Part shown: positions 54,126 to 63,623 of the stretch, piece by piece
How the letters are laid out: each line of letters opens with the position of its first letter
Position numbering within the stretch: the stretch's first letter is position 1
From: Verrucomicrobia bacterium IMCC26134
Lineage (GTDB): Bacteria > Verrucomicrobiota > Verrucomicrobiia > Opitutales > Opitutaceae
Assembly: GCA_000972765.1 (NCBI GenBank)
Contig: CP011265.1
Span: forward strand, 1,364,001 to 1,428,000
Length of the DNA: 64,000 nucleotides
Reading direction: 5' to 3'
Notes under the pieces: generated by a model
What the model was told of the DNA's origin: nothing
The model's input: the letters and a program-made list of their open reading frames with translations, nothing else
The model's database searches: none
Position numbers and translations under genes: made by a program

Positions 54126-54536
54126 AAGGTGGTGGATTAGGCGCCCGATCATGAGGCTTTTTACCTGTGATGCAAATCGGTGCCCGGGCCTGCTTTTCAG
54201 TGGGGCTTGCCTTTTGCGGCCAACTCGAAACGCACCGGCTACGGGGGCGTTTTTAGCATCAGATCAACCCGGCTCAAGCGTCCGTAAAATAGGGACCTTA
54301 ACATGGCCTAGTGTAGCCCCGACCGGTGGTCTGGGTCCGCGGGGAAAGCCCGATTGCCGTTCGGGCCTACAGCAGGCAAAAGCCTACGTTATACGGGCGT
54401 TTGGTATGATCGCGGTGGCTAGGGCTCGTGGGGGACTACAATTAGCAAACTTAGGCCCGCCGCGCTCAGAGTGCGGAGCGCCGTGGAGGGAGTTGCTATG
54501 CCTGACCGCGCTTGTTTCACTTCATGGCTGACAACA
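54126..54536. other. Divergent intergenic region, nothing identified
   Basis: About 410 bp between the divergent zinc-ribbon gene and the HNH nuclease. The HNH frame is open leftward to 54471. No RNA, repeat or family-like coding frame is seen. It must contain both promoters. Confidence 0.5.
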
Positions 54537-55439
54537 ATGATCGCCTGCATCGACCAGACCCTTGACCGGATTTATACCCTCAATGTCGGTGCCGTGGGTC
54601 ACGGGGCCGAGCGACACGAACGCCCGCATAAGGCGCTTCTGCTCCTGGCGGTGCTTGATCTCCTCGATGCCGGACAGGCCACGCCGGACCGCATCCCCTG
54701 GGGCGCACCGCTGCGTGAGCGCTTCAGTCTCTACTTTGCCAAGGTTCGCCTGCGGGATGACCGCGACACCCCGGAAAACCCGTTTCGCTATCTCGCGAGC
54801 GATGGCTTTTGGGAAACCTATCGGATCACGCTCGCTGGTCCCGTCCCATACGAAGGTGAGGTTTTGGTGCGCGATTCCGGCACGCTCTTTGCGCGACTGG
54901 TTGACGGGGTTGATCTAGTCGCGGCCGACGCCAACCTGCGGCATAGGTTGAGACAGGCGCTGGTGGCGCGCTATTTCCCGAACGCGGCGAAACAGTTGAT
55001 CGAGCCCATCGATATGGTGAGTTCGGAAGATGACGACGAGGCACTCGAAGTGCCCGGACGCAACGCGGGTTTCCGGCGTAAGATCCTAGAGGTTTACGAC
55101 CACCAGTGCGTGGCCTGCGGGTTGCGGATAAAACTCCCCGTGCACGAGGCCTGCTACGTGGATGCAGCGCACCTGATACCCTTTGCCGAGAGCGCAAACG
55201 ATCACCCGACCAACGGCATCGCACTCTGCAAAAACCACCACTGGGCGATGGACCGCCACCTCATCGCGCCTACACCGGCCGGCGTGTGGAAAGTCTCGCG
55301 GGTTTTAATCGGTCACCGATCGACCGGCGAAGCGGAGTTGGTGCGCCTCGCGGACCACCCCGTGCTGCCGCCCACGGATGACGCCTACCGCCCCGACCCG
55401 GCTGCGATGCAGTGGCGCGTTGAACGTTTGATCGCGTAA
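54537..55439 (+). CDS. HNH endonuclease, phosphorothioate-DNA-dependent McrA-like
   Basis: 300 residues from the ATG at 54537; ATG 54498 is an alternative. The N-terminal half has RPHKALLLLAVLDLLDAG, RFSLYFAKVRLRDD and NPFRYLASDGFWE, resembling the sulfur-binding domain of ScoMcrA/SprMcrA-type enzymes. The C-terminal half is an HNH site: QCVACGLRIKLP, DAAHLIPFAESANDHPTNG and ALCKNHHWAMDRH, giving two CxxC-like zinc ligands and the H-N-H set. Such enzymes cut DNA carrying phosphorothioate or sometimes methylated cytosine. No dnd genes are in the window, so this would act as a stand-alone type IV restriction enzyme. Confidence 0.75.
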   Translation: MIACIDQTLDRIYTLNVGAVGHGAERHERPHKALLLLAVLDLLDAGQATPDRIPWGAPLRERFSLYFAKVRLRDDRDTPENPFRYLASDGFWETYRITLAGPVPYEGEVLVRDSGTLFARLVDGVDLVAADANLRHRLRQALVARYFPNAAKQLIEPIDMVSSEDDDEALEVPGRNAGFRRKILEVYDHQCVACGLRIKLPVHEACYVDAAHLIPFAESANDHPTNGIALCKNHHWAMDRHLIAPTPAGVWKVSRVLIGHRSTGEAELVRLADHPVLPPTDDAYRPDPAAMQWRVERLIA

Positions 55440-55928: not shown

Positions 55929-55998
55929 GCCTATAAAGTTTGGGGCAACGTAGCTACGATGGATAGAATCAACGTTTCTCGGCCAGGCCCCTTTGGAT
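55929..55998 (-). repeat. ~70 bp direct repeat, copy 2
   Basis: Second copy of the repeat at 55546-55614. It overlaps the C-terminal codons of the McrC-like nuclease (IQRGLAEKR) and its downstream region. Together the two copies bracket the 41- and 71-residue ORFs. Confidence 0.7.
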
Positions 55999-58464
55999 TG
56001 TCGCCAGGCCCCTTTGGATTGTCCTTCTTGTTCTTGGATCGGCCTGCATTGCCTTTAGCAGCACCTGCAAAGTCAAAACCCGTGGAATTGGTGAGGTGCG
56101 CTTCAGCGCTTTAACCTCACGGTATTTACGCCGAGACTCGAATTCGGTCATTACCTCCTGTAACTTTCTGCCATCCCATTTTTGACCATTGAAGACTGCG
56201 TCCGGTTCAACTTCGAAGATGGCATAGATGTCGCCGCTGGCCGATCCGGGATAGCCTTTCTGCTTCAAATCTTCGACGGTAAAAATCTTGTAGCCGGGCT
56301 TCCCGCCTTTGAGCGCTAATAAGCCATCGGCCACTTGGCTCTTGTAGGTGTGGAGCAGAATGTGGCGCGCTGAGGCGAATTCCGGTGGCACGTGCCAAGT
56401 GCCACGTCGATCACCCAGCCGAACGACCGCAAAACCTGTCTTCATCGTCCAGTTAAGTTGCGCTTCGTCCTCAAACCAAGCCACCACCACATGATGTTCA
56501 GACGGAGGCAGCGCCCGCGTCGAGTCGCTCAACTCATCCCGCTCCGCAAGCATCAGTGACCCATACTGCACTGGTTCTTCCTCAAGCATGTAGCTCTCAG
56601 CGACGTGATAGCTCACACGCTCTTGCGCCGTCGTCCGGTTGCTAACGTGCGCGAGCACTTCATCCAAAAATTTTTGAAGCGATTCCAAACCCTGAGCCAC
56701 TCCGTTCTCGTCCGGTGCGACTCCGAACGCACCGAGCCCCGGTAGGATTTCGTGAAACCCCTTAAGCTTCTCCGCTACGTTCGCCCGCCCTGGATAAAGG
56801 ACATAAGCACCTTGCGAGCGTTTAATGGCATCGCGGTATGCGTGCATTTTCAACAAGTCCTGCCGCTTGTAATTGCCCTCAACCTCGTCGTCGGCGTCGT
56901 CCGACCCTTCCGCACCGAACAAGCCCTCAATGTCCTCCACGCGATACTTCGCGTCGAAATGCACATGCACAAGCAACTCCTGCCGCTCCGCGTCCGCCTC
57001 ACTCAAAGCCTCTGGCCAAAACGTCAGCGTGTAGTCGGGATGCAACCGCCGCGTCCAGCTTCCGCCCGCGTGCCGGTCCTGCGTCACTTCAAAGCGGCGG
57101 TTGTAAGCGAAGCGCGCATTCAATCGGCGACTCTGCCCCGCGAACGTGCCGACAAACGGCCCCAGTTCCATCCGCTTCCGCAGCCGAAGATTCGGCGACC
57201 CTTCCTCCAATCCTTCAATCAATTCCTCCACCGCCGGACGATCTCCACCCCGGCACTTCTGGCAGAACCAGCCCAGCAACTCGAAGAATAGCCAATACTC
57301 GTAGAGGCTAGCCACGTCGCGCTGTCCTGCGTGAAACAACTCCTCGCCGCCTTCCCACGAAAGCTCCGCCGCCGTGCGAAACCTCAACCACCAGCGCAGC
57401 ACCTCGCGATAGCCCGCCTTGCGCTGCAACACCGGACTGCCCAGCGGCGCGAAACGCATCTCGCCCACTTCACGAAACAAGCTGCGCCCCAGCCAATCCT
57501 CCACAGTGGCCGCCAGCCGACGCGACAATGCCGCCGATGCGCCCCAGGCATTGCAATTCTCCTTCGCCTCGAAGACGCCCTGTGCGTGGGTGAGGAAAGC
57601 TCGGAACTCGCCCAGCGCGAACTTCACAAACCGGTTCTCCAGCGTATCCAGGTCCCGCGACTTGCGCGGCACCAGCACGCGCTCGGCGATGGACTCCAAA
57701 CCGAGTTGCGTGCGTAGCGGATGCGACGCCGGAACCACGCGGCGTGGATTGCCCGTCACCAGTTGCCGCACCGCCGACGGCGTCCAGCGAACCGGTCGGT
57801 CACTGGAAACGGAGTCGCTCACCGTGGACAGCCGCTCATGGGGAAAGCTCAGGATGCGTTGCAGCGCGGCGGAGAAATCGGCGCTGTCCAGCGTCTCGCG
57901 CAGCAGCTCCAGTTGGATTTGCAGCCAGCCCGCATCCGTCCGGTCTTCAAATGTCGAACGGAAACCCGCCTTGGCCGATGACCGTGCATCCGCTACCAGC
58001 CCCGCCATTTCATCCGACAGCCGCCGAAGCATCCCCCGGTATTCCGTCCGGTAATCCAGCTTGAGCGAGCGCACATCCAGCAACGCCGACGCCACCGCAG
58101 ACTTCGCGTCGTCCACCTCGCCCTCGACAAGTTCCATCAGGAGCGTGCCGCAAAAGGAACGCGTCTCAATCAGTCCCGCATCCGGCTTTCCTCCGCCACT
58201 GCCTAGACTTCGGCGACGACTTGAAAGACTGCAGCGCAGCCGTAAGTCCGCGCCGTTGGCGGACACCACTTCATATTCATACCGCTCGGACTCACGCAAT
58301 TGAATGGTTGTTTCCCCATGTTCCCGAGCGTCTTCCTCATTCGCTTCCGCCAGCGGTGTTGTGAATGGGTTTTGGTCTAACCTGACCGGCACTAATGTGA
58401 CACGCCCCACCACTGTTCCTGAGGGCGAGCGAAACGGAACGCTGGTATCAGGAAGAACGCGCAT
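55969..58464 (-). CDS. McrC-like DUF2357 restriction nuclease subunit
   Basis: 831 residues from the ATG at 58464; an ATG at 58503 would overlap the upstream gene by 35 bp. Long helical N-terminal and central parts match the DUF2357 arrangement (LVPRKSRDLDTLENRFVKFA, VASLYEYWLFFELLGWF). A PD-(D/E)xK nuclease core follows: RRLHPDYTLTFWPEA, LLVHVHFDAKYRVED, where DAKYR is the acid-x-lysine motif, then LLKMHAYRDAI. The C-terminus ends in a duplicated 7-residue unit (TIQRGLA twice). The start is 4 bp after the stop of the McrB-like gene, so translation is coupled. It is the cleavage subunit of a McrBC/LlaJI-type complex. Confidence 0.85.
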   Translation of the reverse strand: MRVLPDTSVPFRSPSGTVVGRVTLVPVRLDQNPFTTPLAEANEEDAREHGETTIQLRESERYEYEVVSANGADLRLRCSLSSRRRSLGSGGGKPDAGLIETRSFCGTLLMELVEGEVDDAKSAVASALLDVRSLKLDYRTEYRGMLRRLSDEMAGLVADARSSAKAGFRSTFEDRTDAGWLQIQLELLRETLDSADFSAALQRILSFPHERLSTVSDSVSSDRPVRWTPSAVRQLVTGNPRRVVPASHPLRTQLGLESIAERVLVPRKSRDLDTLENRFVKFALGEFRAFLTHAQGVFEAKENCNAWGASAALSRRLAATVEDWLGRSLFREVGEMRFAPLGSPVLQRKAGYREVLRWWLRFRTAAELSWEGGEELFHAGQRDVASLYEYWLFFELLGWFCQKCRGGDRPAVEELIEGLEEGSPNLRLRKRMELGPFVGTFAGQSRRLNARFAYNRRFEVTQDRHAGGSWTRRLHPDYTLTFWPEALSEADAERQELLVHVHFDAKYRVEDIEGLFGAEGSDDADDEVEGNYKRQDLLKMHAYRDAIKRSQGAYVLYPGRANVAEKLKGFHEILPGLGAFGVAPDENGVAQGLESLQKFLDEVLAHVSNRTTAQERVSYHVAESYMLEEEPVQYGSLMLAERDELSDSTRALPPSEHHVVVAWFEDEAQLNWTMKTGFAVVRLGDRRGTWHVPPEFASARHILLHTYKSQVADGLLALKGGKPGYKIFTVEDLKQKGYPGSASGDIYAIFEVEPDAVFNGQKWDGRKLQEVMTEFESRRKYREVKALKRTSPIPRVLTLQVLLKAMQADPRTRRTIQRGLATIQRGLAEKR
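55982..56023 (-). repeat. Perfect 21-bp tandem duplication in the McrC-like C-terminus
   Basis: Two exact copies of a 21-bp unit (55982-56002, 56003-56023) encode the repeated TIQRGLA near the C-terminus. Being 21 bp, copy changes keep the frame. The unit is also part of the ~70 bp direct repeat. Recent slippage is the likely origin. Confidence 0.9.
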
Positions 58465-58468
58465 GGGC

Positions 58469-60574
58469 TCACGCCTCAGCGAAGGAGGCGAATCCGTTTT
58501 CAATCAGCAGCCGCCACATCCGGCCAATCTTCTCCGCGCTCAATGGATAAGGCGCACCAGCTGGGACAACGACCGACGGCTCGGCCTTTTTGTCCGTCGA
58601 GCGCGCTGCCTCTTCCGCCGCCTTGAGCGCGTCCGCTCCACGGCCTGCCGCATCGTTCACGCACAGGAACCACAGCTTCTTGAGCACCGGCCCCAGTTTG
58701 GCCCGCGAGCCGTGCAGCTTGGGGAGCAGCTTCTGGAACACCACGCAGTCCATTGCGTATTCGAGCCATCCGCGTCCCTCACCATCTTCGTCAGACCAAG
58801 CTCCTTTGCCTTCATCAAGCTTCTTGTTCCAAACCTTACCGTCACCAAGCAGCTTGTAGAAGTGAATGAAGCGGGCCGTCTCGTAGGCCGTGCGATACCC
58901 AAACTCCGCTCCATGCGCTTGCAGCGTTTTGAAGAGCAACAGCATTTCGGCATCGTAAGCAGCCTTTACCTCGTCGGGCACAGCCACTGAATTCTTGGCC
59001 GCATCTACGAACGCATTCCCAAACGACGGTGCACCTTTGCCATCGAGCTTCGACAGGTCGGGTTTGGCCGGGCTGCCAAGGAAGCCTTCCAAATCGCGAT
59101 CGTTCATGCGGAATTCGATGACGTTCGCCCGATCCAGAACTTTCGGCGAGAACATGTAGGTTGTCTCGTCCACGTTCACCGTGCCTATGATGAAGAGATT
59201 CCCGGGGAGTTTTTTCAGTTTTGGCGGGACTGGCTTTGACGCTGATGTTTTTCGCCACGTTTCCGGCTTCGTCACGTCACCTGAGTAGAGCTCAAGTCCT
59301 TCATCTGACTCGATGATGGAGAGGACGTCGGCGAAATACCGCTCGACGTGCGACAGATTCATTTCGTCGAGAATGAGGAAGTGTGGAACATCACCATGCG
59401 CTTCGGCGTGGAGAATCAAATCCAGAGCGGGTTTGGCAACATAATGGGTTGCCTGTAATCCGTCAGGGTAGCCAAGGATGTTATCGGTGCCTGTCCAGTC
59501 TGCCCCAACCGGAACGACTTCATAGCACTTTGCAGATTCAGTGCTTTTACGAGCTGCAACCAAAGCGAAGGCAGCCGGCTTGTAGTGGCTTTCCAGCCTG
59601 TGCAAGTAACCGGTGATTTTGCTTTGAGCTTCGATCTTGTCGCGCAGCTCGCGCCCGCTCACCGATTCGGGCACGTCATTGGATTGAATATAGTCAGCCC
59701 ACTCTTGGATAATCACGCGAGGAAGCGGCACCAACTTTCCGTCCTCAGTTGCCAGCTCGACTACTCCTGCATCTGCAGCGACTACTGTGTAATCGTTTTG
59801 AATCCCCTTTATTGTGCTCCCTGGTTTAAACGGGTCCGCCGGGACCGTTTTGGGTGTCAGCCATCTCGCAAGAGCCTGAGCGAGCTTCGTTTTGCCTGAC
59901 CCGGCCAAGCCCGTCGCAATCAAAAACCGCTTGGATAAAAGGCATGAAGTGAACCGGTGTGCGATAGTGTTGTCAACGTGCAGTCGACTTATTGCTGCAT
60001 CAGATCTGAATTTTTCAACTAGGTTACTAATGCCTTCTGTCTCTGAACTAGCGCTTCCAGACATCGCACCAGCGGCAGGCGCCAGACCACCGGTTGTCCC
60101 TGTTATAACTAATTGTGCATCATGAAAACGGGACTTTAGCAGGTCAAAATATCCAGATGGCCGGCTTTGGATGACCCGCTTCAATAAAAGACCGCCGTCG
60201 GACTCCACAAAAATCAAAATCACGTCGTATCGCGTATTGTCGCTTCCATCGACGAATTTTCTAGAGGTGACGACCGCGCTATCAGACAGACGCTCTAGAT
60301 CGACAGTGGCGCTCTCCACTTGCATAAAAGCTACCCCAACTTTCGTATGCCGACCAGCTTGGTTGCCCTGAACAAGCCTTGTATCTAAATTTGAGGTTCT
60401 AGTTTTCGCTCCGGTAGCATAAATCTCTTCAATTGGAACTCCAAGAACCCCGGCAAGCAATTCTCGTATCGCGTTATATTTCGTTGTCGATGTGTTACTC
60501 ACTCCATCTGGGTAGCTCGTCAGCAATTCAGTCCATAGGCTGTTTAGCTGTGTCGATGTATCTTCGTTTGGCAT
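58469..60574 (-). CDS. McrB-like AAA+ NTPase subunit
   Basis: 701 residues. The N-terminal ~200 residues are a separate region (TKYNAIRELLAGVLG, DTRLVQGNQAGRHTKVG, YDVILIFVESDGGLLLKRV) that could bind DNA. The AAA+ core follows: Walker A GLAGSGKTKLAQ near 222-233, VPVGADWTGTDNILGYPDG, Walker B HFLILDEMNLSHVERYFADV near 398-417, and TVNVDETTYMFSPKVLDRAN near 457-476 as sensor/McrB signature. It probably hydrolyses GTP or ATP to drive translocation and activate the DUF2357 nuclease. The order with its partner and two methyltransferases is that of LlaJI systems. Confidence 0.88.
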   Translation of the reverse strand: MPNEDTSTQLNSLWTELLTSYPDGVSNTSTTKYNAIRELLAGVLGVPIEEIYATGAKTRTSNLDTRLVQGNQAGRHTKVGVAFMQVESATVDLERLSDSAVVTSRKFVDGSDNTRYDVILIFVESDGGLLLKRVIQSRPSGYFDLLKSRFHDAQLVITGTTGGLAPAAGAMSGSASSETEGISNLVEKFRSDAAISRLHVDNTIAHRFTSCLLSKRFLIATGLAGSGKTKLAQALARWLTPKTVPADPFKPGSTIKGIQNDYTVVAADAGVVELATEDGKLVPLPRVIIQEWADYIQSNDVPESVSGRELRDKIEAQSKITGYLHRLESHYKPAAFALVAARKSTESAKCYEVVPVGADWTGTDNILGYPDGLQATHYVAKPALDLILHAEAHGDVPHFLILDEMNLSHVERYFADVLSIIESDEGLELYSGDVTKPETWRKTSASKPVPPKLKKLPGNLFIIGTVNVDETTYMFSPKVLDRANVIEFRMNDRDLEGFLGSPAKPDLSKLDGKGAPSFGNAFVDAAKNSVAVPDEVKAAYDAEMLLLFKTLQAHGAEFGYRTAYETARFIHFYKLLGDGKVWNKKLDEGKGAWSDEDGEGRGWLEYAMDCVVFQKLLPKLHGSRAKLGPVLKKLWFLCVNDAAGRGADALKAAEEAARSTDKKAEPSVVVPAGAPYPLSAEKIGRMWRLLIENGFASFAEA

Positions 60575-60594
60575 AAGTTATTTATTGCTAGATC

Positions 60595-61761
60595 TCATTC
60601 CGAACCAACAATCGAATCTGCATGTGCTTGAAGTGACTCCAAGAACCGATCCGAATAGGTAACATTTGTGCATACTAGGGCGCGCTTTAGGAAGCCGCTA
60701 GTTGCTCTAACACTCAGTGGCTTTAGTGGATCTTTAAGGAATCTTTCCAGCCGTGGGGTCTGACAAAGTTCGGGCCATTGAGATAGCGTGACTGCATATG
60801 CTTTCCCCTTGTGTCCCCAAGCTGCCTTCGGCCAACGATCGCCCGCTATTCGGAGCGAGCTTACACCATCGTATCCGATCGGGTTTTCAAAGCGGCTAGC
60901 AAGCCAAGTAGACAATCCTGTATTAACAGCATTACCAATCAACCTCCAGCGAGCGTTCTTTTTGAGCCCGACCGTTTGTTCAACTTTAGCCGTCCAATCT
61001 GTCTCAAATCCTTGCAACCGTTCGGCATCGTTTAACGTAATTGTCCCGACAAAATTTCTCTTCGGAACCCAGATAGCAGGGGGGGAAGCAATCCCGATGG
61101 TTGACCCGCCTTTTATTGGCGGAACTCCTTCCTTAGCCCATCCAACGCCCCGGCTGCCCTCCGTCCAATAAAAGCCATACCATGCGCTCTCATCAACGTC
61201 CGATGGCTTGCCATCAATGTCTCCGGGATTTTGATTCCCACTAAACAGAATCTCGCGGGGATCCTCGGTCCGCGATGCAACCATAAGGACTCTAGGTCGG
61301 CGCTGTGGAGTTCCGAACGACCTAGCATCAACAACGCGATAAGCCCACATATACCCCAAATGCTCTAATTCGGAAACCAAATGCCGCATCGCTGCCCCAG
61401 CGTCTAGGGAAAGCATGTAAGGCACGTTTTCTACCACTAGCCATTTCGGCTTAGGCCGCGCGGTCGAGATTAATCTAAAGAGGTGATCAACTAGACCCGA
61501 GCGAGTTCCACCAATTCCAGCTTTACCTCCAGCTTGGCTCAAGTCTTGACATGGAAATCCCGCAAGAAGGAGGTCGCAAGCGGGGAGCCTTTTTAACTTA
61601 CTGACATCGTGCGATATTGGCACATCAGGAAAGTGCGCGCCGAGGACAGCCTGAGCAGCAAGATCGTTTTCGCAGAAGAGGAGAGGCGTGCGCCCAAGCT
61701 TGTGGAATCCAAACTCCAACCCCCCAATCCCTGAAAAGAGACTCACAATGCGCTCACTCAT
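60595..61761 (-). CDS. DNA (cytosine-5) methyltransferase 1
   Basis: 388 residues. m5C motifs: I, LFSGIGGLEFGF (8-19); IV, GFPCQDLSQAG with the catalytic Cys (about 71); VI, VVENVPYM (about 109-116); VIII, QRRPRVLMV (about 153); X, GNAVNTGLSTWL. The target-recognition part is residues 170-270. It would protect the host's sites from the associated nuclease. The start overlaps the stop of the upstream methyltransferase by 4 bp (ATGA), showing tight coupling. Two methyltransferases for one system fit an asymmetric site with different sequences on each strand. Confidence 0.94.
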   Translation of the reverse strand: MSERIVSLFSGIGGLEFGFHKLGRTPLLFCENDLAAQAVLGAHFPDVPISHDVSKLKRLPACDLLLAGFPCQDLSQAGGKAGIGGTRSGLVDHLFRLISTARPKPKWLVVENVPYMLSLDAGAAMRHLVSELEHLGYMWAYRVVDARSFGTPQRRPRVLMVASRTEDPREILFSGNQNPGDIDGKPSDVDESAWYGFYWTEGSRGVGWAKEGVPPIKGGSTIGIASPPAIWVPKRNFVGTITLNDAERLQGFETDWTAKVEQTVGLKKNARWRLIGNAVNTGLSTWLASRFENPIGYDGVSSLRIAGDRWPKAAWGHKGKAYAVTLSQWPELCQTPRLERFLKDPLKPLSVRATSGFLKRALVCTNVTYSDRFLESLQAHADSIVGSE

Positions 61762-63140
61762 GAATGGCCTCCTCCTGCGTTTAGAAGCGCCAGACCTAAA
61801 ACATATCCCAGTTTTGGTGGCACCGCGTTTCCGATGTATTTCTGCAACTGGCGTCGTCCTAAATCGTCAAACGAAAACCAGTCTGGAAAAAATTGGATCC
61901 TGGCCGCCTCATGCGGCGTGAGAGTGCGTTTTCGGAAAGGATGAACAAAACGACCTTGTCCTGTAGATCCAAATCCGCTCGTAATTGTTGGAGCCTGTGC
62001 GTCCGGGCGCATCCGTCCATATACCGAGTTGTAAGCATGCGGCTTTAGCCGATGACAATCAGGTCGCTCAGAATCTGGAAGCTCATAAAGATCATTCTCA
62101 AACAAATAGTTGATTCTTTCTTTGTTGGTTGCCGAGTGAGTAGCTGCCGTCGTGAAAACGTTTGGAGATGATTCCGACTCGTCAATTAAGTCATCAATTG
62201 CCCACATTACTGGACGCACCTTCCGCACAAGTGCCATGAGGGTGCATTGAAGCACTTCAGGATTACCAAACATGGCCAAGGTGAAATGTCTCTTGCGATT
62301 TTGCGCTACACCATAGTTCGCCGCATTGAGCATTATGGAAGCGGTCTGATAGCCTAGGCGATTGAGGTGCTTTAATGTTTTTTGAACCACCTCCGTTGAT
62401 GAATGCCTGACACCTAAAACGTTCTCAATGATAATGAACTTTGGTTTGAGGACAGTCGCCGCCCGGCCCATCACTCCATATAAGTCGTTCCTTGGGTCGT
62501 TTCGGCGGGTGTGGTTATTAAGATCCGAATGCCCCTGACAAGGTGGCCCTCCAATCAGAAAGTCCACGTGTCCACATTGCTCTTTGAGGCGTTTTTCTCC
62601 CGGATTTAGCGAGGCTGTTGCCACGTTATCAAAGGTCTCCTCTATCGGCTTGGAGCAGATGTGTTTCGGAAAGAGATTCGCAGAATAAACTTCAAGGGCT
62701 CCCTCATCTATATCCGATGCAAATACAGACTCAAACCTTCCGTCCAATGCTTGTGCGGCTGCTTGGATACCAACGGATAAACCGCCGCATCCCGCAAACA
62801 AATCCACGACGCGCAGGTTGGGACCGCTTCCTAGAGACTCTGGTGGTCGTTGCGCCATCAGCCATGATTTTTCAAAGGATGCGTCAATATCGAGGCCGAA
62901 CGGTTCATTGGTTGCAGGAAAGGAAGCACTTCCTTCGTAGTTGGCGATGGATACCTTTCTCGTGATTTTTTTTCCGTCCCTACTCAGACTAAAATATTCA
63001 GGAGCAACTACCTGCGGAAAAAATCCGAGGTCGCCACTTTGGTCAGGCGGATCAAACTGCTTCTGTCTTTTTATCATGGAAATCTTAGTTCGTTCAAGTT
63101 CGGTGTTTCGCGTCTTGGATGCAGCGAGAAATTTCTTCAT
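61758..63140 (-). CDS. DNA (cytosine-5) methyltransferase 2
   Basis: 460 residues; an ATG at codon 22 (63077) is an alternative start. An N-terminal extension of about 110 residues precedes motif I (VVDLFAGCGGLSVG, 111-124). Then follow ASDIDEGALE, motif IV (IGGPPCQGHSDLNNHTRRND, Cys about 201), motif VI (IIENVLGVRH, 237-246), motif VIII (NRKRHFTLAMFG, 281-292) and motif X (YIGNAVPPKLG). It is the first gene of the operon and probably methylates the second strand or target of the restriction site. Its N-terminal extension may help recognition. Confidence 0.93.
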   Translation of the reverse strand: MKKFLAASKTRNTELERTKISMIKRQKQFDPPDQSGDLGFFPQVVAPEYFSLSRDGKKITRKVSIANYEGSASFPATNEPFGLDIDASFEKSWLMAQRPPESLGSGPNLRVVDLFAGCGGLSVGIQAAAQALDGRFESVFASDIDEGALEVYSANLFPKHICSKPIEETFDNVATASLNPGEKRLKEQCGHVDFLIGGPPCQGHSDLNNHTRRNDPRNDLYGVMGRAATVLKPKFIIIENVLGVRHSSTEVVQKTLKHLNRLGYQTASIMLNAANYGVAQNRKRHFTLAMFGNPEVLQCTLMALVRKVRPVMWAIDDLIDESESSPNVFTTAATHSATNKERINYLFENDLYELPDSERPDCHRLKPHAYNSVYGRMRPDAQAPTITSGFGSTGQGRFVHPFRKRTLTPHEAARIQFFPDWFSFDDLGRRQLQKYIGNAVPPKLGYVLGLALLNAGGGHS

Positions 63141-63623
63141 GCGGCCAATTCCAGTTGATTATCCGTCTTTCGGCGCTCGCGGAAGCCGCGTTTGGCGTCG
63201 ACGTTTCTGTTTTTCGCGAGGAACCAGATGCAAACTAGAAAGGCTGAACGAGGAAGGATGAGGGATGAAATGGTGATCAGGCGGTTCGGCACTCTCAGTT
63301 CGTCATTCGGCATTTTCCGTTTGGCCTCGCCGGACTGGTTGTAGGACATGCTGCCATTGGCGCGGACGTAGGCCGATGGTGGCGGATGCTTGGGAGGAGG
63401 AAACGACGGAATGATTTGCCTGCTCAATGTGATTCGTGGGTTTTGAAGACCGTGACGGGTTAGCGCAACGTTCGTTTCTGGAAAATTGGAATGGTTGAGA
63501 AATCAAGAGGGTTTCGGCCGCGAAGCAGACCATGGCACCTGAGACCAGATGTCGTGTAGGCCGGTGAGTTCTGCGGATTGGTCGGGTTGGCGCAGCAACG
63601 CAGATTAAGGTAGACGATTAAGG
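63141..63623. other. Intergenic region before the methyltransferase operon
   Basis: About 480 bp. An open frame on the minus strand (63137-63427) has no domain. The bases around 63240-63330 (ATGAGGGATGAAATGG, TCGTCATTCGGCATTTTCC) look like the low-complexity intergenic sequence common in Verrucomicrobia. The operon promoter should lie here, but I cannot place it firmly. Confidence 0.45.

What the first reader, a model, noticed from the sequence alone, without database searches (positions are those of the whole stretch)
55969..63140. LlaJI/BsuMI-type restriction operon: two m5C methyltransferases, McrB-like ATPase and DUF2357 nuclease
Four minus-strand genes with ATGA overlap, a 20 bp gap and a 4 bp gap are arranged M2-M1-R1(McrB-like)-R2(McrC-like). 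Known LlaJI systems have two m5C methyltransferases for an asymmetric site plus McrB/McrC-like restriction subunits. Here the nuclease is of the DUF2357 type, and the ATPase has a ~200-residue N-terminal region that resembles no domain I can name. The system may have a new recognition site.
Basis: partly seen in the sequence, partly recalled or inferred. Interest (0 to 1): 0.75.

Follow-up and report, generated by a model that had tools for sequence, protein, structure and literature searches.

The report
Restriction system with swappable targeting module
Four bacterial genes look like a DNA defence system that marks its own DNA with two methyl-writing enzymes and destroys unmarked DNA with a motor and a nuclease; the half of the motor that should choose the target appears to have been inherited with the methyl-writers rather than with the rest of the motor.

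Summary
The four genes are present as described: M2 and M1 (intact m5C methyltransferases), R1 (McrB-like AAA+) and R2 (McrC-like DUF2357 plus PD-(D/E)XK nuclease). Best reading: a type II-like restriction-modification system with a McrBC-type nuclease. "LlaJI-type" fits the layout, not the family: R2 does not match Pfam RE_LlaJI, and DUF2357 is the ordinary N-terminal domain of McrC. R1 carries the NxD signature of an uncharacterised, methyltransferase-associated McrBC branch flagged in 2024; the closest experimental precedent appears to be PcaI (one methyltransferase).

New here: R1 is a compositional chimera. M2, M1 and R1's first ~200 codons share one codon composition (GC3 0.43-0.48); R1's AAA+ part and R2 share another (0.64-0.68). 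In 66 related loci the N-terminal part is lower in 58; in the 26 with an m5C gene within 2 kb its GC3 tracks the methyltransferase (partial r 0.88), not its own C-terminal half (0.00). M1 and M2 trees agree with each other, not with the R2 tree. So M2, M1 and the R1 N-terminus look like an exchangeable specificity cassette. R2 also ends in a predicted YTH-like domain. Site, asymmetry and activity are untested.

The parts
61758..63140 (-). M2: m5C DNA methyltransferase, 460 aa, key motifs present; first gene of the operon
   Evidence: PADLOC MTase_II PDLC03368 2.7e-115
60595..61761 (-). M1: second m5C DNA methyltransferase, 388 aa, different subfamily; overlaps M2 by ATGA
   Evidence: PADLOC MTase_II PDLC03324 1.4e-146
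58469..60574 (-). R1: McrB-like AAA+ motor subunit, 701 aa, NxD signature (N467, D469)
   Evidence: PADLOC PDC-M26A 5.5e-36
59981..60574 (-). R1 N-terminal region (residues 1 to about 198): proposed target-recognition domain, no known fold assigned; GC3 0.43, like M1 and M2
   Evidence: AF2 model unreliable here
59525..59842 (-). Insertion of about 106 residues in the AAA+ domain after Walker A, present in a subset of relatives; function unknown
59888..59911 (-). Walker A motif GLAGSGKT (residues 222-229)
55969..58464 (-). R2: McrC-like nuclease subunit (ATG at 58464; the open frame begins at a TTG at 58503)
57388..58176 (-). R2 DUF2357 domain (McrC N-terminal domain), residues 110-372 of the 844-aa frame
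   Evidence: 1.5e-35
56785..57306 (-). R2 PD-(D/E)XK nuclease domain, residues 400-573; predicted catalytic P489 D490, D517, K519
56026..56514 (-). R2 C-terminal domain, residues about 664-826: predicted YTH-like fold
   Evidence: Z 7.5-8.9, 122-138 residues aligned
63141..63623 (.). 483-bp gap upstream of M2, presumed to hold the operon promoter; the consensus scan showed none here

Best explanation
A four-gene, methylation-guarded restriction system. M1 and M2 write m5C at the system's own recognition sequence, most simply one strand each of an asymmetric site. R1 is a McrB-type AAA+ motor whose first ~200 residues bind the unmethylated site; R1 rings recruit R2, whose McrC-like domain stimulates the motor and whose PD-(D/E)XK domain cuts after translocation. 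The operon is a mosaic: M2, M1 and the 5' part of the R1 gene form a specificity cassette joined to a motor-nuclease core (rest of R1 plus R2) that in other genomes is joined to other cassettes. Shown by sequence: gene content, intact motifs, NxD signature, separate histories, composition step. Inferred: site binding by the N-terminus, translocation, protection, asymmetric site, role of the YTH-like domain. The confidence given is for the restriction-modification and mosaic reading; I put the asymmetric site alone at about 0.5.
For: Gene order and motifs. McrB/McrC homology. Relatives of both M1 and M2 sit as an adjacent pair upstream of R1-R2 in three other loci: L064 (62/60% identity, the best match of each), L055 (48/45), L047 (45/44). 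Among 98 R1 proteins the window's N-terminus matches only L064 at significance (37% over 155 aa, 7e-25); L047 and L055 N-termini resemble each other (z 8.4). M1 and M2 trees agree: (window, L064) 99/99 in both; (L047, L055) 90/93 and 98/97. In the R2 tree (quick method, 87 rows) the window groups with L046, L044, L017, L047 and L045 (95), L064 lies outside and L055 pairs with L059 (99); the four systems need 4 changes (shuffled mean 3.9), that is, no clustering. GC3: M2 0.46, M1 0.48, R1 N-part 0.43, R1 core 0.64, R2 0.68; cassette versus core chi-square 98, p 4e-23. Over 66 loci N-part below core in 58 (Wilcoxon 4e-11); R2 cut at codon 200 shows no step (mean 0.009); 68 control ORFs -0.015, sd 0.046; partial r of N-part with methyltransferase given core and R2 0.88 (n 26), with core given methyltransferase 0.00. 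The step lies near Walker A; in the window at -24 codons.
Against: No activity, methylation or recognition site is known. One of the four M1/M2 systems, L064, has no composition step (R1 N-part 0.51, core 0.44); the best change points of the other two lie 44 (L047) and 149 (L055) codons after Walker A, not before it; and only 34 of 67 loci have a strong change point at all. N-termini of the pairs (window, L064) and (L047, L055) are not clearly homologous (window-L047 z -0.5; L064-L047 z 5.8; hhalign E 0.024, probability 2%). M1's second-best relative is a solitary plasmid gene (L034, 51%), ahead of L055 and L047, and the M1 tree does not make the two pairs sisters, so the M1/M2 pair may have been assembled more than once. 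The composition step is about as large in loci with no m5C gene (mean -0.114 of 18), so it marks foreign N-termini in general, if it marks exchange at all. Rows are related by descent and thus not independent. The YTH-like domain of R2 has no explained role in a system that should ignore methylated DNA.
Confidence: 0.78

Rival explanations
1. Same restriction-modification system, but M1 and M2 act on two different (for example palindromic or overlapping) sites, only one of which concerns R1-R2; the other is a companion or regulatory methyltransferase. (A variant of the best explanation that differs only on the asymmetric site.)
For: M1-like enzymes show no second m5C gene in about 13 kb in 6 of 6 plasmid loci examined (L034-L038, L040; 6 of the 14 records with at least 80% coverage), and in one of two same-family genomes (L129, next to an unassigned 284-aa protein; the other, L128, has a second m5C gene of another subfamily). 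An M2-like enzyme is the only m5C gene in L039 and L130. Of 387 genomes, 3 have M1-like and 2 have M2-like genes at E<=1e-50, this genome included, and only this genome has both. M1's target-recognition stretch is about as conserved as the rest (63% vs 62% to L064; 48 vs 47 to L055; 53 vs 51 to L034; 46 vs 46 to L036; but 39 vs 49 to L035), hinting at one common site across solitary and paired forms.
Against: Both are kept intact and adjacent in all four loci with this pair upstream of R1-R2, assigned to Verrucomicrobiota and Planctomycetota for the three named ones; their trees agree. One plasmid M1 relative (L040) is followed by a gene annotated as an Eco57I-type methylase, so some 'solitary' forms may have a partner of another class.
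Confidence: 0.4
2. A type IV (modification-dependent) McrBC enzyme whose neighbouring methyltransferases are incidental or serve something else.
For: Many relatives of R1-R2 show no m5C gene (28 of 62 informative loci; at least L075 and L080 of these have an N4/N6 methyltransferase instead). Of 23 R1 proteins scanned against Pfam, 7 carry MrcB_N or EVE above cut-off (MrcB_N: L022/L099, L028, L042, L088, L108, L112; EVE: L028, L044). R2 ends in a YTH-like fold.
Against: ATGA overlap and 20-bp and 4-bp gaps make one operon; this R1 N-terminus does not match MrcB_N or EVE in Pfam and its one clear relative, L064, also has the M1/M2 pair. A McrBC enzyme reading m5C next to two m5C writers would be expected to attack its host.
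Confidence: 0.12
3. The GC3 step within R1 is not a swap but selection: recognition domains and methyltransferases are kept AT-rich or use rare codons for low expression, while the motor core is codon-optimised.
For: The step has the same sense in 58 of 66 loci, also where no m5C gene is present.
Against: Trees of M1/M2 and R2 disagree, and loci whose R2 is 80-86% identical to the window's (L046, L044) carry R1 N-termini without a match to it, which selection on codons does not explain.
Confidence: 0.2
4. A decayed or silent island.
For: R1, M1 and M2 have no match in 3 of 3 same-genus genomes sampled; a DUF932 gene lies directly upstream.
Against: All four frames are open with intact catalytic motifs.
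Confidence: 0.05

Closest known systems
NxD-type, methyltransferase-associated McrBC homologues (Bell et al. 2024, eLife, PMC11090510; passages and sections 6-7 read)
   Same: NxD signature, adjacent DNA methyltransferase, McrC homologue with extra fused domains, insertions in the GTPase domain. The paper says no NxD McrB has been characterised and defers this group to a later publication.
   Different: Two methyltransferases here; no two-component genes recognised in the operon. What I read of the paper does not describe in-gene composition steps or exchange of N-termini with methyltransferases.
PcaI of Pectobacterium (Birkholz et al. 2022, PMC8989522; passages and section 22 read)
   Same: [quoted passage not shown] shown to restrict DNA lacking its m5C mark.
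   Different: One Dcm-like methyltransferase, palindromic CCNGG. Its sequence was not in hand, so homology was not measured.
LlaJI (O'Driscoll et al. 2006, PMC1459862; abstract, Results part 1 of 2 and Discussion read)
   Same: Two m5C methyltransferases, R1 McrB-like with a unique N-terminal half, R1 alone binding the site, R2 with PD-(D/E)XK; restricts unmethylated asymmetric GACGC.
   Different: R2 here does not match Pfam RE_LlaJI; the R1 N-terminus shows no sequence match to a known DNA-binding domain. A review places a B3 domain in LlaJI R1 (PMC12707154, passage).
BsuMI (YdiR, YdiS, YdjA)
   Same: The R2 model matches chain A (Foldseek 8.9e-5) and the R1 model chain B (1.1e-2) of 9a5m, a YdjA-YdiS model (which chain is which is inferred from the title and lengths).
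   Different: BsuMI has three restriction genes with a separate small GTPase of 343 aa (PMC1459862).
E. coli and Thermococcus McrBC (type IV)
   Same: Motor and nuclease folds (6ut6, 6ut7, 6hz4).
   Different: No cognate methyltransferase; NxxD signature; N-terminus reads modified bases (PMC11090510 and PMC12707154 passages).

Membership tests
LlaJI-type restriction-modification system | Four similarly oriented genes: two m5C methyltransferases, R1 and R2 | tested here: met
LlaJI-type restriction-modification system | R1 with a C-terminal McrB-like GTPase domain | tested here: met
   (homology and motifs; nucleotide preference not tested)
LlaJI-type restriction-modification system | R2 in Pfam RE_LlaJI (PF09563) | tested here: not met
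   no match at E<=1; none in the genome, B. subtilis control positive
LlaJI-type restriction-modification system | B3 DNA-binding domain at the R1 N-terminus | tested here: inconclusive
   no sequence match; AF2 pLDDT 25-59 there
LlaJI-type restriction-modification system | Asymmetric recognition site methylated on both strands | not testable with these tools
   needs methylation data
BsuMI | Three restriction genes, small GTPase without fused N-terminal domain | tested here: not met
   R1 is one 701-aa protein and R2 the only other restriction gene
Type IV McrBC | McrB-like AAA+ and McrC-like DUF2357 plus nuclease | tested here: met
Type IV McrBC | NxxD signature | tested here: not met
   VNVDE at 466
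Type IV McrBC | No methyltransferase in the operon | tested here: not met
   two m5C genes in the operon
Type IV McrBC | Modified-base reader at the McrB N-terminus | tested here: inconclusive
   no MrcB_N or EVE match in Pfam, but the fold is unsolved
NxD methyltransferase-associated McrBC branch (Bell 2024) | NxD signature | tested here: met
   N467, D469 invariant in 38 of 38 rows; 93 of 93 R1 proteins fit a slightly loose NxDE pattern (most loci were recruited with patterns that include DETTYMF)
NxD methyltransferase-associated McrBC branch (Bell 2024) | Methyltransferase association and extra domains fused to the McrC homologue | tested here: met
NxD methyltransferase-associated McrBC branch (Bell 2024) | Place in the published McrB tree | not tested
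   the published alignment was not in hand
PcaI | Homologous R subunits including the C-terminal extension | not tested
   I had no PcaI sequence and did not search for one

The most novel reading that the evidence does not exclude
This NxD McrBC core (AAA+ part of R1 plus R2) is a general-purpose motor-nuclease that is retargeted by exchanging whole specificity cassettes: methyltransferase gene(s) together with the 5' part of the R1 gene, through recombination at a hinge near the Walker A motif. By swapping cassettes the same core passes between guarding an unmethylated site (m5C pair, single m5C, and apparently N4/N6 methyltransferases) and attacking modified bases (MrcB_N or EVE). The YTH-like domain at the end of R2 would then be a constant second sensor of DNA modification.
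Probability: 0.5. Interest if true: 0.72.

Novelty: new variant of a known kind. Interest (0 to 1): 0.55.

Why it matters
The NxD, methyltransferase-associated McrBC branch is uncharacterised according to the 2024 census. If its N-terminal parts move with the methyltransferases, then (1) recognition domains can be delimited from DNA composition, (2) their sites can be read from the methylome of the host, since methyltransferase and N-terminus should share a site, and (3) chimeras made at the natural hinge should retarget the nuclease, which makes how an McrBC motor changed from reading methylated to unmethylated DNA directly testable.

Tried and rejected
Structure of the R1 N-terminus: the AF2 model has block pLDDT 25-59 over residues 1-180, so its topology was not used; a two-row profile found nothing among PDB sequences. 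In the VIA rows for R1 nothing addressed residues 1-170, which is no evidence that the fold is new. More homologues of the N-terminus: of 384 genomes of the class only this one matched.

Recognition site: no relative with a stated site was found; promoter k-mers and consensus promoters (3 found, 4.1 expected in shuffles, none in the gap upstream of M2) gave nothing.

Homology of the two N-terminal pairs: tested by shuffles, HMMs and hhalign, not established. The HMM without the window row finds the window (3.5e-7) presumably because it contains L064.

The rank correlation (0.91) shares a term in both variables and is not used; one search replaces it by partial correlation and controls.

YTH pocket: the canonical aromatic cage (recalled, from no call) was compared by eye with the alignments only; I make no claim about a ligand.

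L107 (Paenibacillus) also has two adjacent m5C genes, of other subfamilies; its R1 N-terminus gives a weak RE_AlwI match (0.0054, below Pfam's cut-off). A lead only. L096 has two m5C genes 669 bp and more upstream and was classed 'dist'. One '1MT' locus, L058, has only a 181-aa m5C fragment.

Mobility: R1 has 258 plasmid records with a match, all under 60% identity and none covering 80%; viral contigs gave 2 loci.

Literature: searches (8 of 10). One search (McrBC, NxD, methyltransferase) returned only the 2024 paper and its preprint; two searches listed no paper on exchange of McrB N-termini with methyltransferases among the titles shown (10 of 95, 15 of 112), which is not a full search. One search (PDC-M26) listed no paper with that name among the 8 shown of 1,561. 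Papers opened: PMC1459862, PMC8989522 and PMC11090510 (named sections); PMC11779793, PMC12707154, PMC10855626 and PMC12898733 (passages only; the last two hold no mention of McrB).

Rows dropped: 5 duplicate loci (L041, L019, L020, L021, L022) before counts; R1 proteins with under 130 residues before Walker A, or without an R2, before the 66; R2 fragments of 550 aa or less before the 87-row tree. L064 R2 in that tree is cut at a contig end (621 aa).

Full report
OBSERVATION. The four genes exist at the stated coordinates with the stated junctions: ATGA overlap, 20 bp, and 4 bp to the ATG at 58464. Both methyltransferases carry intact motifs and match Pfam DNA_methylase. R1 is an AAA+ protein; R2 has DUF2357 and PDDEXK_7 with an intact PD...DxK site. 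No Rfam family at gathering score and no tRNA was found in the window.

WHAT R1 AND R2 ARE. A profile of 38 R1 proteins matches McrB in the PDB (6hz4, 1.4e-6); the R1 model aligns with E. coli McrB (Z 16.6, 181 residues, rmsd 2.8), though other AAA+ proteins score as high (2r44, Z 18.1). The R2 model matches Thermococcus McrC (Foldseek 2.8e-7) and a chain of the B. subtilis YdjA-YdiS model of BsuMI (8.9e-5); by sequence alone the R2 profile finds no McrC in the PDB. DUF2357 is simply the McrC N-terminal domain (PMC11090510). R1 has VNVDE, the NxD signature; N467 and D469 are invariant in 38 of 38 rows. Bell et al. 2024 state that no NxD McrB has been characterised, that many are associated with methyltransferases, and that these will be treated in a later paper.

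C-TERMINAL DOMAIN OF R2. Residues about 664-826 of the R2 model align with YTH domains: of the 50 rows, 4 are McrBC entries and 46 align in this region; 44 of these name YTH proteins or Mmi1 in their titles and 2 (4r3h, 4r3i) are titled only as an RNA-binding protein and an RNA complex. Z is 7.5-8.9, 122-138 residues, rmsd 3.2-4.6. The tool warns that Z near 8 can be a common arrangement; the consistency of the family and the coverage of nearly the whole YTH domain make the fold likely (block pLDDT 71-92 over residues 671-820), the function unknown. PcaI's nuclease subunit has a C-terminal extension of unknown function (PMC8989522), and McrC homologues fused to EVE-superfamily domains are noted in general terms in the 2024 paper.

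RELATIVES. With one more pair in the own genome and two viral loci, and 5 duplicates dropped, 93 distinct R1 loci were classed by m5C methyltransferases: two adjacent in 5 (window, L047, L055, L064, L107), one adjacent in 19, one or more further off or on the other strand in 10, none in 28 with at least 5 kb upstream, and 31 with none but too little upstream DNA to say. The detector was seeded from M1 and M2 and sees only m5C enzymes; L075 and L080 have an N6_N4 methyltransferase just upstream, and L044 an N6_Mtase. Of 23 R1 proteins scanned against Pfam, 7 have an N-terminal domain above cut-off: MrcB_N in L022/L099, L028, L042, L088, L108, L112; EVE in L028 and L044. The other 16, the window's among them, have none.

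SEPARATE HISTORIES. Relatives of both M1 and M2 occur as adjacent pairs in L064, L055 and L047. L064 holds the best relative of each; M1's next-best is a solitary plasmid gene (L034, 51%). The M1 and M2 trees agree: window with L064 (99/99 in both), L047 with L055 (90/93; 98/97). The R2 tree (quick method, 87 rows) does not: the window joins L046 (96), then L044, L017, L047 and L045 (95); L064 is outside; L055 joins L059 (99); the four M1/M2 systems need four changes. R2 is 86% identical to that of L044, whose neighbour is an N6 methyltransferase and whose R1 has an EVE domain. Among 98 R1 proteins the window's N-terminus matches only L064 (7e-25); L047 and L055 N-termini resemble each other (z 8.4), and the link between the two pairs is marginal.

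COMPOSITION. In the window GC3 is 0.46 (M2), 0.48 (M1), 0.43 (R1 up to 10 codons before Walker A), 0.64 (rest of R1), 0.68 (R2); cassette 490/1061 versus core 879/1323, chi-square 98. L047 and L055 show the same step; L064 and L107 do not. Across 66 loci with at least 130 residues before Walker A, the N-part is lower in 58 (mean -0.127). Controls: R2 cut at codon 200 gives 0.009 (31 of 66 negative); 68 unlabelled ORFs of at least 450 aa from the same loci give -0.015, sd 0.046. These control ORFs were chosen mechanically and some may not be genes. In the 26 loci with an m5C gene within 2 kb on the same strand, mean absolute differences are 0.038 (methyltransferase to N-part), 0.139 (N-part to core) and 0.051 (core to R2); the partial correlation of N-part with methyltransferase given core and R2 is 0.88, and 0.86 in 24 loci without two near-copies; with core given methyltransferase it is 0.00. 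A single change point is strong (2 delta lnL over 20, my threshold) in 34 of 67 loci; 26 of these 34 lie within 60 codons of Walker A; the window's is at -24, about residue 198, L047's at +44 and L055's at +149. The step is also present where no m5C gene is found, as expected if N-termini are exchanged there too, but also as expected from the codon-selection rival.

MECHANISM. By analogy with LlaJI, where R1 alone binds the site and both subunits are needed in vivo (PMC1459862), and with PcaI, where an m5C methyltransferase protects from a DUF2357-type McrBC nuclease (PMC8989522), the R1 N-terminus should bind the unmethylated site, and R1-R2 should translocate and cut. The asymmetric site is plausible, but M1-like and M2-like enzymes also occur apart.

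SETTING. R1, M1 and M2 have no match in 3 of 3 same-genus genomes sampled, so the operon looks accessory. A DUF932 gene lies directly upstream.

VERDICT. An intact, probably working restriction-modification system; a two-methyltransferase variant of the NxD McrBC branch, LlaJI-like in plan but not in family. The notable result is the chimeric R1 gene and the evidence that the targeting half is inherited with the methyltransferases.

Noticed in passing
window 54471-55439 (+): Protein with HNH_2 (4.3e-10) and an NCBIfam match to phosphorothioated-DNA restriction endonucleases (7.5e-25, 87.6 bits, below the cut-off of 180), tail to tail with R2: a possible modification-dependent nuclease beside a modification-writing system, compare the PcaI/PcaII conflict of PMC8989522.
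   Followed up: partly
L032 8022-12247 (G000:C1 near 3,051,000): A second NxD-type McrB-like plus DUF2357 nuclease pair in the same genome, preceded by a TPR protein and without an m5C gene in the 19 kb fetched.
   Followed up: partly
L044 1-5604: N6_Mtase gene (3.4e-71, cut at the contig end), then R1 with an EVE domain, then an R2 86% identical to the window's: the same core joined to an adenine-type methyltransferase.
   Followed up: partly
L075 8211-13716; L080 8131-13711: N6_N4 methyltransferase, a 198-235 aa protein without Pfam match, a short R1 lacking an N-terminal domain, and R2: the small protein may be a separate specificity subunit.
   Followed up: no
L051 1691-1987; L052 6652-6984; L073 9671-9961: By eye, a related small protein of 96-110 aa directly precedes R1 proteins that lack an N-terminal domain.
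   Followed up: no
L107 9266-11335: Paenibacillus system with two other m5C methyltransferases whose R1 N-terminus weakly resembles the AlwI restriction enzyme (0.0054, below cut-off), an enzyme of an asymmetric site by recall.
   Followed up: no
L129 7599-8453; L036 7551-8393: Proteins of about 280 aa, alike by eye, without a Pfam or PADLOC match next to M1-like methyltransferases: candidate restriction enzyme of an unassigned family.
   Followed up: partly
window 59525-59842 (R1 residues 245-350): Insertion in the AAA+ domain after Walker A, shared with 35 other R1 rows at E<=0.01 (duplicates included) and absent from others; no Pfam match.
   Followed up: partly
L031 5463-6569: S-adenosylmethionine synthetase gene about 5 kb upstream of the operon.
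   Followed up: no
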